A stretch of DNA of 64,000 bases from Deltaproteobacteria bacterium (GTDB taxonomy: Bacteria > Myxococcota_C > UBA6777): positions 248,001 to 312,000 of the forward strand of contig PCBK01000052.1 of the NCBI GenBank assembly GCA_002731275.1. The letters run 5' to 3'. Position 1 is the stretch's first letter; each line of letters begins with the position of its first letter. The position numbers were made by a program, and so were the translations under genes. Below are positions 2,829 through 17,456 of this stretch, piece by piece. The notes beneath the pieces were generated by a model that searched no databases, was not told the DNA's origin, and worked only from the letters and a program-made list of their open reading frames with translations.

Positions 2829-4097
2829 CTAAGACAACTCATCTCCTTCGGACACAGGGAGCTTACAAGGCAGCGCGACAAAGAAAGTGCTCCCCTCTCC
2901 AACATCACTCTCAACCCACAAACGACCGTGGTTGTTCTTGATAAGCTCGTGACATAAGATCAAACCCAGACCCGTTCCCTTCTCTTTGGAGGTCCCTCTC
3001 GTCGTCGTTTGCACATCGATACGAAACAGCTTATCAATTTGCTCCTTGGACATCCCCACACCGTTATCCGCAAAGGCGATCACCATCTCGTCGTCTTTCA
3101 CCTCACAAGAGATTCGAATCCAGCCCCCCTCGTAAGTAAATTTGATCGCGTTGGAGACGAGGTTTCGAAAGACAGTCTCGATCATCTTCTTGTCGACAAA
3201 CACCGAACAATTCTTGTCAACAGTAGTTTGAAGCTCAACTCCCTTTCGTTTTGCGGTGTCTTCGAGGAGATAGAACGTATCATCTACAAATTTTTGCAGG
3301 TTGTGATGTGCGGGGTGAAATTGCATGGTGTTCATTTGTAGACGAGACCATTCGAGCAGGTTTTCGAGAAGTCGAGAGAGCGTGTGTGCTGACTTATGCA
3401 TATTTCCAGAAAATCGGATCACCTCCTCAAGTGACAATTCATCGATGCTCTCCATCAGCGTTTCGGTCGTCAACAGGAAGGTGTGGAACGGATTGCGTAG
3501 GTCATGTGCGACGATAGAAAAGAATCGGTCCTTGCTCGCGTTGAGCTGCTTCAGCTCGGTGTTTGCCTCTTGAAGCTCTGCAGTTCGCTGCGTGACCTTG
3601 TCTTCGAGCTCTGCGTTCAGTTGTGTCAACTTCTGCACAAGTTTTTCATTCTCGACCTCCAGTTCATAAGCCTCAAGAGCCCGTCTGATCGTCATCATCA
3701 TATCATGAGCGCCGAAAGGCTTCAGGACAAATTTATAAATTTGTCCCTTGTTGATGGAGGCAATAATCGCATCGACGTCAGTGTACCCAGTCAATAAGAT
3801 GCGTTTTGTCCGTGGAATAATATCGAGAGAGGCTCGAAAAAGTTCGACACCCGTCATTTCAGGCATGCGTTGATCGCTGATGATCATTTGGATGCGTTCA
3901 GGATTCTCTTGTGCCTTGATCAAGGCGAGGGCTTCGAGTCCATCTTTCGCTTCAAGGATCTCATACTCATCTTGGAGCAGATCCGAGAGCGTCATGAGGT
4001 TGTGTTCTTCGTCGTCGACGATCAGGATGGTGTGTCGTTTGGTTTGCTTCTTTTTTTCCTGGGCTTTCGCCAAGGCTTCTCGTTTGAAGATGCCCAT
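2829..4097 (-). CDS. Hybrid receiver-histidine kinase, soluble
   Basis: The 422-residue protein has an N-terminal receiver domain (residues 22-142; phospho-acceptor Asp75 in ISDQRMPEMTG, acidic pair DD at 28-29, Lys126 in LKPFG). A coiled coil follows (about 145-190), then a HisKA domain with His198 in SIVAHDLRNPFH, then a HATPase domain with DNGVGM and GTGLGL boxes. No membrane segment is present, so it should act in the cytoplasm, taking its input through the receiver. It starts 22 bases after the stop of the kinase-receiver-cyclase gene, preceded by AAGAAGGA, so the two are very likely co-transcribed and functionally linked. Confidence 0.92.
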   Translation of the reverse strand: MGIFKREALAKAQEKKKQTKRHTILIVDDEEHNLMTLSDLLQDEYEILEAKDGLEALALIKAQENPERIQMIISDQRMPEMTGVELFRASLDIIPRTKRILLTGYTDVDAIIASINKGQIYKFVLKPFGAHDMMMTIRRALEAYELEVENEKLVQKLTQLNAELEDKVTQRTAELQEANTELKQLNASKDRFFSIVAHDLRNPFHTFLLTTETLMESIDELSLEEVIRFSGNMHKSAHTLSRLLENLLEWSRLQMNTMQFHPAHHNLQKFVDDTFYLLEDTAKRKGVELQTTVDKNCSVFVDKKMIETVFRNLVSNAIKFTYEGGWIRISCEVKDDEMVIAFADNGVGMSKEQIDKLFRIDVQTTTRGTSKEKGTGLGLILCHELIKNNHGRLWVESDVGEGSTFFVALPCKLPVSEGDELS

Positions 4098-4119: not shown

Positions 4120-7100
4120 TTAGGAGGATGATTGCCATACGACACGGAACAGCGACACACCTTTCTCCTTCCCCTTGAGCTGTGCGAGCCCTGCGGGTTC
4201 AAAAGGAGGCATTTGTGGCTCTTGCTGGCACGCATCCACCATTCCCTGGGAGATCACGATCTCAAGGGCATCGGCTTCGTGTTGGATACGTGCTGCGGTG
4301 TTTACGACGTCACCGTAAACATCATGTTCTTCAACAATACCTTCCCCTCTATGAATCCCGATGCGGATCCGGATGGGGTGCAGGGTTGTACTCTCTTGGT
4401 TGTACTCCTCGAGCATTCGCTGCATCTCAGTCGCAGCAAGAATGGCCCGGTGGGGCACTTCAAAGGAGGCCATGATCGCGTCACCGATGGTCTTGATCAC
4501 GCGGCCTTGGTGCGCTTCGATGATAGGAAACAGGAGGTTATCGTGTGTTTGTACAAGCAATCGTCCGGCGACATCACCGTGCTCATCATAAAATCGCGTG
4601 GAGCCTTCGAGATCTGTAAACAGGACGGTGATTTCACGACGAAAGAGTCGGGCACGCTCTTCGGGTGTGAGCAACCCTTCAAAGAGATCTTTTGCGGCCT
4701 TTTGTGTGTACGCATCGGGGCGGTGAAGAAGGCCAGTGGAGGCATTTCTGTAAACCATCCGTCGATCCGGATCCAGCCTGACAGGAAACGCGATCGCGTT
4801 GGGTGTTGACTTGTCCTCCGAAGGGACCGCCAGCATAAAGGGCATCAATGGAAAGAGTTTGCGTCCCACGCGATCGAACAGATACAGCGTCTGTTTTTCC
4901 AACCCACGACGGCTGATGTAGGTGGAGTGTTCTGGGTTAAGACCTCGTAGAATGGTCAGATCGTGGTGGACCCCCTCTCGGGTAAGCTCGACTGAATCGA
5001 CACGCACAAGATCAAAGTCGATGAGCCGGTAAATACGACGAAAGATCGCGTACAAAAATGGGTCGAGCACCTCGACCACTTTTTCGACCTCTCGCTCTTC
5101 AAGGAGCGAGTCATCCCGCCACATATCGTCGTAATAATCCGCCAGGATCTGCATCGTCTCGATGGGCGTAATCTCCTCTGGCGCATCGAAGCCAACGAGC
5201 GGCGCAACGACCTCGGCAACACGTCTGAGTAGGAGTGCTTCTTCCTCCTGCTTCCAGGTATCGACGATCAGCAGATCGCGAAGCTCCCTTGAGAGGAAGC
5301 TCAATTTTTTCTCTCTGTAGACATCGCCAGCCGCAGCGAGCAGACGAATCCAGGCGTGAGGTCCCATGCGACCTGCGAGCTGTTGAAGTCGCCTGTTCAA
5401 ACCAGGATCAAAGGTTCGATCGTGGACGTAACAGGCCATTGTGATCGTCCCCAACCAGGAAAGCAACATCTCAAACTGCGCTGCGAGTAAGCCGTGTCGA
5501 ACTTTTACGGTCGTTTTTCTCTCAGGGGAGTTGCGAAAACGATACCGAACTTCAGCGAGAGGTGTTGGGTATTCATCTTGTACGACGCGCTCAAAATCAT
5601 CCCCTTTGGGGCGGTGATCCAGTGCTTCTTTTGCCGACTTCAACAGGATCTTGCGTTTGACGGGCTTGGGCAAGTATGTCACGGCCCCCAAACGACCAAG
5701 CTCAGCGGCCTCCTGAAAGGAGTGATTTGCGGTCTGGATGATGCAAGGCAGTGAGGGGCAAAGTTGACGGATTTGCTGCAAGGCACCGCGCCCATCAAGG
5801 CGGGGCATGTCCAGATCGAGAACACACAGATCATAGGAGGTCTCTTGGACTCGCTCGACAGCCTCAATACCATCTTGGGCAGTATGGACCTCATAGCCTG
5901 CGGAGCGAAAGATGACGCGCACTGCGTCTAGGATCTCTTCTTGATCATCGACGAGCAGCAGTTGCCTTTTGCCAGAGCTCTTGCGTGAACGTGCGATCAA
6001 GCTAGAAGAGATCGATGACTCAGGTTCCCACTGCATCAAGCGAACATTGAGCGGGGCTTGCTGACGCACACTGGGTGAGGCTTGCTGACGCACACTGAGC
6101 GGGGCTTGTTGGGCCATACTGACAGGGGTCTTCTCGCGCACAGACTCCAGCACCTTTGGGCTGGAGTCGATATCAGCAGTCGGCTCCAAGTGAAACCTCC
6201 GAGAATTCAGCTCCTCTGCAGGTGGGCTGATGCTTTGCCTTTGTGTATTCGATATGGGCGTCTTCTCACCAGGTTGCTTCTCCAACAAGAGGCTTTTCGA
6301 CTGGTACGAACCCTGTGTGTGTTCGTCAACGCTTCGAACTTTTTCGACCGCGCTCTCTCGCGTTTGTGCCCATTGTTGATTTCGTTCACCGAGCTGATCA
6401 GAGGCCGCCCCATCCATCAACCACCGGACATACCGAGCAAGACGGCGAGCGCCTGCCACCATCCCCTGATCCATCATAAAGCTCTCTAAGTCTTCGAGCA
6501 GCTCACCACAGTCGGCGTAGCGTTCATCTCGGTCATACGAGATAGCCTTCATCACGATAGCTTCGAGACCTTTGGGGTATCCCTTGCGATACAGGGAGGG
6601 TCGTTCGTACTGCGCAGTGATGATCTTTTTGAGCGTCGCGGCTTCGCTGTTACCGTAAAACAAGCGATATCCAGTAGAGAGCTCCCAGAGGACGACACCA
6701 AGCGCAAATACATCCGTCCGCTGATCAATGGGTTGATCGTCGATCTGTTCGGGAGACATGTAAGCATATTTGCCTTTGACAACGCCTGTTTTCGTGAGAT
6801 GAAGTTGCGTGACGGCTTTCGCGACCCCAAAGTCAACGATTTTCACATGTCCATCGAGGCTAATCATGATATTGGGAGGGGAGATATCTCTGTGAACGAT
6901 GTTGAGAGGTTGTTGTTCGGCGTTTTTGAGCCGATGTGCGTGATCCAGTCCAGTGCAAACATCCATCACGACGGCACAACAATATTCGTAGGGGATCAAC
7001 ACACCTGATTGGATCGCTTGTTTGATCAGGTGGTTAAGGACAAATCCATCGATGTACTCCATCGCCATGTAGTACACGTCGTCTGCATGACCGAGCTTGT

Positions 7101-7350
7101 AGATCTGACAAATATTGGGATGATTAAGGCGCGCAGCGAGCCGTCCCTCATCGAGAAACATACGAATAAAGTCTTCGTTTTCAGTAAGATGAGGTAAGAT
7201 CACCTTCACAGCTAGGCGCTTCTCGAAACCTTCAACACCGATCTGCCTAGCTTCCCACACTTCGGCCATTCCACCAGAGGCGATTTTGCGAACCAACTCG
7301 ATATCATCAAGTCGCTTTTTTTTCTGAAGCATACAACCCATCCCAACCAC
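4120..7350 (-). CDS. Ser/Thr protein kinase - receiver - class III nucleotide cyclase fusion
   Basis: The 1076-residue protein joins three signalling modules. Residues 17-295 are a bacterial Ser/Thr kinase (glycine loop IASGGMAEV 23-31, Lys49, HRD 153-155, DFG 173-175). Residues 300-455 are a linker with 8-residue repeats. Residues 461-580 are a receiver (acidic pair 468-469, Asp512, Thr540, Lys562). Residues 590-890 are a largely helical region I cannot assign. Residues 904-1060 are a class III cyclase with all key positions visible: metal Asp913 and Asp957, Lys953 and Asp1014 at the purine positions, Asn1017 and Arg1021 at the transition state, which favours ATP as substrate. It is presumably cytoplasmic. 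The start could be Met1, Met4 or Met7 (7350, 7341 or 7332). It leads a two-gene operon with the receiver-histidine kinase. Confidence 0.93.
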   Translation of the reverse strand: MVGMGCMLQKKKRLDDIELVRKIASGGMAEVWEARQIGVEGFEKRLAVKVILPHLTENEDFIRMFLDEGRLAARLNHPNICQIYKLGHADDVYYMAMEYIDGFVLNHLIKQAIQSGVLIPYEYCCAVVMDVCTGLDHAHRLKNAEQQPLNIVHRDISPPNIMISLDGHVKIVDFGVAKAVTQLHLTKTGVVKGKYAYMSPEQIDDQPIDQRTDVFALGVVLWELSTGYRLFYGNSEAATLKKIITAQYERPSLYRKGYPKGLEAIVMKAISYDRDERYADCGELLEDLESFMMDQGMVAGARRLARYVRWLMDGAASDQLGERNQQWAQTRESAVEKVRSVDEHTQGSYQSKSLLLEKQPGEKTPISNTQRQSISPPAEELNSRRFHLEPTADIDSSPKVLESVREKTPVSMAQQAPLSVRQQASPSVRQQAPLNVRLMQWEPESSISSSLIARSRKSSGKRQLLLVDDQEEILDAVRVIFRSAGYEVHTAQDGIEAVERVQETSYDLCVLDLDMPRLDGRGALQQIRQLCPSLPCIIQTANHSFQEAAELGRLGAVTYLPKPVKRKILLKSAKEALDHRPKGDDFERVVQDEYPTPLAEVRYRFRNSPERKTTVKVRHGLLAAQFEMLLSWLGTITMACYVHDRTFDPGLNRRLQQLAGRMGPHAWIRLLAAAGDVYREKKLSFLSRELRDLLIVDTWKQEEEALLLRRVAEVVAPLVGFDAPEEITPIETMQILADYYDDMWRDDSLLEEREVEKVVEVLDPFLYAIFRRIYRLIDFDLVRVDSVELTREGVHHDLTILRGLNPEHSTYISRRGLEKQTLYLFDRVGRKLFPLMPFMLAVPSEDKSTPNAIAFPVRLDPDRRMVYRNASTGLLHRPDAYTQKAAKDLFEGLLTPEERARLFRREITVLFTDLEGSTRFYDEHGDVAGRLLVQTHDNLLFPIIEAHQGRVIKTIGDAIMASFEVPHRAILAATEMQRMLEEYNQESTTLHPIRIRIGIHRGEGIVEEHDVYGDVVNTAARIQHEADALEIVISQGMVDACQQEPQMPPFEPAGLAQLKGKEKGVSLFRVVWQSSS
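6049..6120 (-). repeat. Three tandem 24-base repeats encoding an 8-residue linker repeat
   Basis: Three consecutive 24-base units (6049-6072, 6073-6096, 6097-6120) encode SVRQQAPL, SVRQQASP and SMAQQAPL in the linker between the kinase and receiver domains. Being in-frame and nearly identical at DNA level, they look like recent slippage or duplication that changes linker length without breaking the protein. Confidence 0.85.
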
Positions 7351-15875: not shown

Positions 15876-17456
15876 ATGACGGATACAGAACCCAAGACCC
15901 GACGCATACTGCAATCACTCTTCAGCGGCCTCGACCTCGAAAATAGCGAAGCCGAAGGGTCATCTGCCGAGACGGAGATCGCCCCCAACCCTCTGCTCAA
16001 CAACCAGACGATCGATCTCACAAGCGAAGACCTGATCGAAGAGGTCATCGACTTCGAAGATGAGGACGCTTACCCAACATGGGATTTCTCCAACATCCCT
16101 ACACCTCTCGAAGGGATAGACATCCTCAGACAACACGCTCTGTTCTCCGATGTCTCAGATGAATCGCTGAAGGCGCTCTCTCAACAGACGCAAGAGCAAC
16201 ACTTCGCAGCCAACACCCAACTGATCCATAAAGGCGAAGTGGGCGAATGTATGTACATTCTGCTCGACGGACAGGTCCGCCTCTCGATGCTCGACAAAGC
16301 GACCCGCGAGACGCACACGTTGCTATTGGGTCCAGGTCAACTCTTTGGGGAGATCGCGCTGCTCGCAGGTGTCCCACGTAGCGCTGATGTCTTCGCACAT
16401 ACAGATATTCGCTGCTTGCGGATCAACAAAACAGATGTCGAGCAGTTGATCAAAGCCCACATCGATCTGGCGAGTATGCTCACGACCTTGCTCGGTGAAC
16501 GCCTCGTCGCGTCGGGAGAATTACAACGAGTCGGTGCGTACCAACTGCTCTCAGAGCTCGGTCGTGGCGGGATGGCCACAGTCTATGCAGGTGTACACGC
16601 GACGAAGCCACTATTTGTCGCGATCAAAATGCTCTCTCATGAGCTGGTCTACCAAGGCAGCTTCGCCGATGACTTTCGACGAGAGGCCAAGGTCCTCTCC
16701 ACCCTGCGACATCCACACATCGTCGACTTTATCGACAGCGAAGAGGCTTACGCGACCTTCTTTATCGTCATGGAAAAACTCTCAGGTGTCGATCTCAACA
16801 GGCGTATCCAACACGAAGGTCCATTTGATTACGACCTGACACGTTCCATCCTGCGACAGCTCGCCTCAGCCCTCGCATACGCCCACGATCACGGGATCAT
16901 TCACCGTGACATCAAACCCTCCAACATCATGTTTGCAGGTGATGGAAAGGTGAAGCTCACGGACTTTGGTCTCGCAACCCACCTACACGTCCTACAAGCG
17001 ATTACACCAAAAAATCGACCACTCGCGGGGACACCTGTGTACATGGCCCCTGAGTTGATCTTGCGCAAACCAATCGATCACCGCATCGACATTTACGCCC
17101 TGGGGATCGTCGCCTACAAAATGCTCGCAGGCAAACCACCCTTTGTCGGGAAACTCAGAGAGGTCCTGTTCCACCACGTCGAAACACCACTGCCTTCGAT
17201 CCTCGACATCGACCCCGACATCCCCCAAGACATCGTCGACTTCATCGAACGGGCGACCCAAAAAGATCCCAACGCGCGCTTTCAAAGTGCACATGAGATC
17301 CTCGACCTCTTTGACAAGGCGACACCACAAGAGGCGATCCCCGAGATGACACGTATCACACTGACATACCCCTCCAGACGAAAAAACCTCGTCCAACAAG
17401 CCGTCGCGGCGCTCAAAGAACAGCTCGGCGACAAAGTTGATCTGATCATCGAGTGA
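15876..17456 (+). CDS. Cyclic-nucleotide-binding Ser/Thr protein kinase
   Basis: The 526-residue protein has an acidic N-terminal 80 residues, a cyclic-nucleotide-binding domain at about 85-205 and a Ser/Thr kinase at about 221-480. The binding cassette FGEIALLAGVPRSA (157-170) keeps Gly158, Glu159 and Arg168, the residues that hold the ribose and cyclic phosphate in CRP/PKA-type sites. The kinase has the glycine loop LGRGGMATV, Lys251, HRD 343-345 and DFG 363-365, so it should be active. The order is like eukaryotic PKG. The ATG at 15876 is preferred since AAGGA directly abuts the earlier ATG at 15864. It is followed 12 bases later by the DksA-like gene, so both form an operon. Confidence 0.92.
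   Translation: MTDTEPKTRRILQSLFSGLDLENSEAEGSSAETEIAPNPLLNNQTIDLTSEDLIEEVIDFEDEDAYPTWDFSNIPTPLEGIDILRQHALFSDVSDESLKALSQQTQEQHFAANTQLIHKGEVGECMYILLDGQVRLSMLDKATRETHTLLLGPGQLFGEIALLAGVPRSADVFAHTDIRCLRINKTDVEQLIKAHIDLASMLTTLLGERLVASGELQRVGAYQLLSELGRGGMATVYAGVHATKPLFVAIKMLSHELVYQGSFADDFRREAKVLSTLRHPHIVDFIDSEEAYATFFIVMEKLSGVDLNRRIQHEGPFDYDLTRSILRQLASALAYAHDHGIIHRDIKPSNIMFAGDGKVKLTDFGLATHLHVLQAITPKNRPLAGTPVYMAPELILRKPIDHRIDIYALGIVAYKMLAGKPPFVGKLREVLFHHVETPLPSILDIDPDIPQDIVDFIERATQKDPNARFQSAHEILDLFDKATPQEAIPEMTRITLTYPSRRKNLVQQAVAALKEQLGDKVDLIIE

What the first reader, a model, noticed from the sequence alone, without database searches (positions are those of the whole stretch)
4120..7350. Three-output signalling fusion: Ser/Thr kinase, receiver and nucleotide cyclase in one chain
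All catalytic residues of the kinase and the cyclase and the phospho-acceptor of the receiver are present, so one protein should phosphorylate proteins, accept a phosphoryl group and make a cyclic nucleotide. A 300-residue helical region between receiver and cyclase is unassigned. I know of STK-cyclase and REC-cyclase proteins, but not of this order as a standard family. The next gene is a receiver-histidine kinase that could phosphorylate it.
Basis: partly seen in the sequence, partly recalled or inferred. Interest (0 to 1): 0.8.

Follow-up and report, generated by a model that had tools for sequence, protein, structure and literature searches.

The report
Kinase–receiver protein with added adenylyl cyclase
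One bacterial protein really does join a Ser/Thr protein kinase, a two-component receiver and a cAMP-making cyclase; a relative in the same small phylum has the same protein without the cyclase, so the conserved unit looks like a receiver-controlled kinase and the cyclase like an extra output attached in this lineage.

Summary
Window 4120-7350(-) is one open frame of 1076 aa with Pkinase 18-272, Response_reg 465-572 and Guanylate_cyc 906-1063, all far above cut-off. Receiver and cyclase motifs are complete, and the cyclase carries the ATP-type K953/D1010 pair. "All kinase catalytic residues" is not quite right: the catalytic-loop Lys (HRDxK) is Ser (HRDISPPN), a variant that recurs in this genome and in the relative. 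The "helical region" is part helix, part predicted beta, and matches no Pfam, PDB or PADLOC family. The key new result is comparative. A homologue in another genus of this five-genome phylum has kinase–receiver–linker followed by the same receiver–histidine kinase gene, but no cyclase. So the conserved unit is a receiver-coupled Ser/Thr kinase with its probable cognate histidine kinase; the cyclase is a lineage-specific C-terminal addition (or was lost in the relative). Among 72 long cyclase proteins sampled from diverse genomes, 3 carried a kinase, 1 a receiver and none both. I read it as a new variant of known kinase–cyclase and receiver–cyclase fusions: rare and testable, but assembled mostly from known parts. 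Activity and gating are untested.

The parts
4120..7350 (-). Ser/Thr kinase–receiver–linker–adenylyl cyclase fusion gene, 1076 aa (start may be ATG 7332)
6535..7299 (-). Hanks-type Ser/Thr kinase domain, residues 18-272; K49, E68, HRD153-155, S157 in place of the catalytic-loop Lys, N160, DFG173-175
   Evidence: Pfam PF00069 2e-38; PknB-like in PDB; residue table
5971..6480 (-). low-complexity spacer, residues 291-460, containing a 24-bp tandem repeat (2.7 copies, 6044-6108)
   Evidence: no Pfam match; only 59 residues of it align in the homologue
5635..5958 (-). receiver domain, residues 465-572, phospho-acceptor D512
   Evidence: Pfam PF00072 5e-25; all five signature residues kept in the homologue
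5023..5595 (-). linker, helical part, residues about 586-776; no known family
   Evidence: low-confidence models; 32% identical to homologue
4711..5022 (-). linker, predicted beta part, residues about 777-880; no known family
   Evidence: low confidence; 38% identical to homologue
4162..4635 (-). class III adenylyl cyclase domain, residues 906-1063, with D913, D957, K953, D1010, N1017, R1021; absent from the homologue
   Evidence: Pfam PF00211 3e-21; PDB Ma1120 1e-22
2829..4097 (-). probable cognate soluble REC–HisKA–HATPase_c histidine kinase, 422 aa, 22 nt downstream of the fusion gene
   Evidence: conserved next to the homologue at 51% identity

Best explanation
The conserved unit is a two-gene cassette: a soluble receiver–histidine kinase and a Ser/Thr kinase–receiver–linker protein. 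The histidine kinase, itself controlled through its own N-terminal receiver, autophosphorylates on the H-box His and passes the phosphoryl group to D512 of the fusion protein. Receiver phosphorylation, transmitted by the alpha/beta linker, changes the protein's oligomeric state or contacts and so gates its outputs. In the relative the only enzymatic output is the Ser/Thr kinase. In this genome a class III adenylyl cyclase has been appended to the linker; since class III cyclases work as dimers, the receiver and linker probably control cAMP synthesis by controlling dimer geometry. SHOWN: single frame, domains, residues, gene pair, homologue without cyclase. INFERRED: operon, phosphotransfer pairing, gating, dimerisation, cAMP as product, and the direction of the change (gain of the cyclase here rather than loss in the relative).
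For: Domains and motifs. A second genus, G003 (record SBHC01000054.1), has STK-REC-linker of 781 aa ending right after the linker, followed by the orthologous REC-HK, and no cyclase match on that contig. STK and REC are 52-53% identical with all receiver signature residues kept; the linker is 32-38% identical. The cyclase's closest relatives in the genomes searched (47% identity and below) are mostly N-terminal cyclase domains of quite different proteins, consistent with module capture. The phylum shuffles receivers and cyclases elsewhere: a receiver 58-60% identical to that of the partner kinase is fused to a cyclase in G003 and G001.
Against: Only one homologue of the linker was found, so gain and loss cannot be told apart. 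In G001 the histidine kinase is present without the STK gene upstream, so pairing is not obligatory; that assembly is fragmented (930 contigs). The S157 substitution leaves kinase activity uncertain. Nothing tests gating.
Confidence: 0.5

Rival explanations
1. cAMP is the main output: the protein is in effect a receiver-controlled adenylyl cyclase, and the Ser/Thr kinase is an input or feedback domain (phosphorylating the spacer, the receiver or the histidine kinase) rather than a true second output.
For: Complete ATP-type cyclase residues. The receiver is joined to the cyclase by a conserved 300-aa linker but to the kinase by a low-complexity spacer. Receiver–cyclase proteins exist in this phylum. 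The kinase has the catalytic-loop Lys replaced.
Against: The homologue keeps kinase, receiver and linker and has no cyclase, so the linker is not there primarily for a cyclase. The kinase is as conserved as the receiver.
Confidence: 0.25
2. The domains act largely independently: an accretive fusion without cross-regulation, in a genome with at least 151 Ser/Thr kinase domains and much domain shuffling.
For: At least 151 kinase and 123 receiver domains in this genome; the 170-aa low-complexity spacer can uncouple the kinase from the rest.
Against: STK, REC and linker have stayed together with the same partner gene in two genera.
Confidence: 0.15
3. The fusion is an assembly or gene-calling artefact.
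For: The source genome is a draft (200 contigs, 5.5% contamination).
Against: Uninterrupted frame inside a 595-kb contig; G+C at third positions is 0.56-0.59 across all segments; the STK-REC-linker order is independently present in G003.
Confidence: 0.03

Closest known systems
Homologue in G003 (SBHC01000054.1, 'Deltaproteobacteria bacterium isolate M3003')
   Same: STK–REC–linker order, all receiver residues, HRDxSPPN loop, adjacent REC-HK gene
   Different: ends after the linker; no cyclase; spacer about 110 residues shorter
TOMM system kinase/cyclase fusion proteins (NCBIfam TIGR03903)
   Same: Ser/Thr kinase and class III cyclase in one chain
   Different: 97 bits against a cut-off of 706, best stretch in the kinase; here a receiver and an unknown linker stand between; TOMM genes were not looked for beyond the adjacent genes
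Receiver–class III cyclase proteins, including the REC-cyclases of G003 and G001 found here
   Same: receiver N-terminal to a class III cyclase
   Different: no Ser/Thr kinase, and a short connection in place of the 300-aa linker
Ma1120 and Rv1900c/LipJ, mycobacterial class III cyclases with solved structures
   Same: closest solved cyclase domains include them; same K/D ATP-specifying pair as Ma1120 (K101/D157, PMC4215837)
   Different: no kinase or receiver; Ma1120 has Ala where this protein has N1017
REC–STK fusions (receiver first) in the same genome (C49, C177 and C185)
   Same: receiver and Ser/Thr kinase in one frame, judged by coordinates and frame length
   Different: opposite order, no cyclase among the matches

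Membership tests
Hanks-type Ser/Thr kinase | kinase domain with ATP-binding Lys, alpha-C Glu, HRD Asp, Asn, DFG Asp | tested here: met
   K49, E68, D155, N160, D173; Pfam 2e-38
Hanks-type Ser/Thr kinase | catalytic-loop Lys two residues after the HRD Asp | tested here: not met
   S157; same in the homologue and in 4 of 19 other loops read in this genome
Response-regulator receiver | acidic pair, phospho-acceptor Asp, Thr/Ser, Lys | tested here: met
   D468, D469, D512, T540, K562
Class III adenylyl cyclase | two metal Asp, transition-state Asn and Arg | tested here: met
   D913, D957, N1017, R1021
Class III adenylyl cyclase | residues that specify ATP rather than GTP | tested here: met
   sequence criterion only: K953 and D1010 align with K101 and D157 of Ma1120 (PMC4215837)
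Class III adenylyl cyclase | cAMP-forming activity | not testable with these tools
   needs an assay
TOMM kinase/cyclase (TIGR03903) | score over the family cut-off of 705.75 | tested here: not met
   97.2 bits
Two-component pair with the adjacent histidine kinase | adjacent cognate gene kept across species | tested here: inconclusive
   kept in G003; in G001 the histidine kinase is present without the STK gene just upstream
Two-component pair with the adjacent histidine kinase | specific phosphotransfer | not testable with these tools
   needs an assay

The most novel reading that the evidence does not exclude
One aspartate phosphorylation event on the receiver, relayed by a new alpha/beta linker domain so far seen only in this small phylum, gates two chemically different outputs of the same molecule at once: protein phosphorylation and cAMP synthesis.
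Probability: 0.2. Interest if true: 0.65.

Novelty: new variant of a known kind. Interest (0 to 1): 0.42.

Why it matters
It links histidine-aspartate signalling, Hanks-type kinase signalling and cAMP in one chain. The with- and without-cyclase pair gives a natural experiment on how a signalling protein gains or loses an output. The linker is an unassigned conserved region between receiver and effector that can be expressed and studied.

Tried and rejected
Linker homologues: profile search of the whole phylum (5 genomes), 386 genomes sampled across bacteria and 195 genomes of the phylum of G032 gave only the window and G003; the pattern scan of the GTDB contigs gave only the G003 record. Pfam, PDB sequence and PADLOC searches of the linker gave nothing credible. 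Structure: two AlphaFold models from very shallow alignments (4 and 2 rows; mean pLDDT 57 and 55); Foldseek of the linker model gave no credible match (best E 0.02, TM 0.15), so no fold is claimed. A resemblance of the linker to HEPN-type domains came to mind but no test supported it and it is dropped. Defence-system kinase models (PD-T4-6) match only the kinase domain and were not taken as evidence of a defence role. Paper searches found no description of this architecture, but the library lacks most subscription journals. Artefact of assembly: considered and disfavoured.

Full report
Observation. The frame 4120-7350 on the minus strand encodes 1076 residues without interruption. Pfam places Pkinase at 18-272 (2e-38), Response_reg at 465-572 (5e-25) and Guanylate_cyc at 906-1063 (3e-21), each well above its curated cut-off. 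The window lies at positions 248001-312000 of a 595-kb contig of a 10.75-Mb draft genome. Third-position G+C is even across all segments, 0.56-0.59, and there is no sign of an assembly join.

Residues. Kinase: K49, E68, H153-R154-D155, N160, D173-F-G175 and E201 are present, but the catalytic-loop Lys is S157. The homologue has the same Ser. In a sample of kinase domains from this genome, 4 of 19 other loops read carry the HRD-[IV]-S motif, so this is a recurring subfamily here and not an isolated decay. Whether it is active was not tested. Receiver: D468, D469, D512, T540 and K562, all conserved in the homologue. Cyclase: metal Asp 913 and 957, transition-state N1017 and R1021, and K953/D1010, which align with K101/D157 of Ma1120, the pair described as ATP-specifying there (PMC4215837). 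The expected product is therefore cAMP.

Linker. Residues about 586-880 match nothing in Pfam at E 10, nothing in the PDB by profile and nothing convincing in PADLOC. Two AlphaFold models from alignments of 4 and 2 sequences have low confidence (mean pLDDT 57 and 55), but both give helices up to about residue 776 followed by strands. So 'helical region' describes only its first two thirds. Foldseek found no credible relative, as expected for such a model. Neither protein has a hydrophobic stretch long and strong enough to suggest a membrane helix (best 19-residue Kyte-Doolittle means 1.46 and 0.77).

Comparison. The held genomes of this phylum number five, all in one family. A linker profile finds one other member, in genus g2 (G003, record SBHC01000054.1). 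Its protein, 781 aa, is STK–REC–linker and stops about 16 residues after the linker; the next gene is the orthologue of the window's REC–histidine kinase. No cyclase match lies on that contig. Segment identities are 52% (STK), 53% (REC) and 32% and 38% (the two linker parts). In G001, also g2, the histidine kinase sits beside the same acyl-CoA dehydrogenase gene as in G003, but the 300 bases upstream of it to the contig end hold no end of an STK gene, so the two genes can separate.

Origin of the cyclase. Searching 386 genomes with this cyclase domain, its nearest relatives (47% identity and below) are mostly cyclase domains at the N-terminus of unrelated architectures, several followed by what look by eye like CHAT-type or FHA domains (the CHAT and FHA labels are my reading, not a domain search). 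No close relative was found elsewhere in its own phylum at the threshold used. This suits capture of a cyclase module by an existing STK–REC–linker protein, but with one homologue a loss in G003 cannot be excluded.

Rarity. I collected 72 cyclase frames of at least 600 aa from genomes across bacteria and scanned them with kinase, receiver and linker seeds. One is STK–CYC, two are CYC–STK, one is REC–CYC, and none has both STK and REC. The sample favours high-scoring or similar cyclases and phmmer seeds can miss domains, so this shows rarity, not uniqueness. Paper searches found no description of this order.

Mechanism. The best reading is a histidine kinase (controlled through its own receiver) that phosphorylates D512 of the fusion; the linker transmits this to the enzymatic domains. 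The Ser/Thr kinase is the ancestral or at least the shared output; the cyclase adds cAMP in this genome. Class III cyclases need a dimer interface for catalysis (established knowledge), so receiver-driven dimer changes are the simplest way to gate it. Operon structure is inferred from the 22-nt gap. No step of the signal flow has been shown experimentally.

Verdict. A real, rare fusion whose parts are all known kinds except the linker. It is best classed as a new variant of known kinase–cyclase and receiver–cyclase fusions. The most valuable new fact is the cyclase-less relative, which makes the gating question directly testable.

Noticed in passing
L016:7717-9333 (G003) and L017:2016-3419 (G001): REC–cyclase proteins whose receiver is 58-60% identical to that of the window's histidine kinase 2829-4097: the same receiver module is used both for a histidine kinase and for a cyclase in this phylum.
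   Followed up: partly
whole genome G000: At least 151 Ser/Thr kinase domains (224 candidates, 150 scored) and 123 receiver domains, a very large kinome in a phylum with five held genomes.
   Followed up: partly
window 6044-6108: 24-bp tandem repeat, 2.7 copies, giving an 8-residue repeat (SVRQQA-type) in the spacer between kinase and receiver.
   Followed up: no
window 16539-17303 (+): A second Ser/Thr kinase in the window, with a canonical HRDIKPSN loop; the best-scoring kinase domain listed for the genome.
   Followed up: no
G000 contigs C49/C177, C71/C200, C178/C193: Pairs of matches with identical scores and frame lengths on different contigs, suggesting duplicated contigs or strain variants in the assembly (reported contamination 5.5%).
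   Followed up: no
L014:5741-6048 (G001:C261): The histidine kinase orthologue stands without the STK–REC gene, with an inverted-repeat-like stretch upstream; the contig ends after 300 bases.
   Followed up: partly
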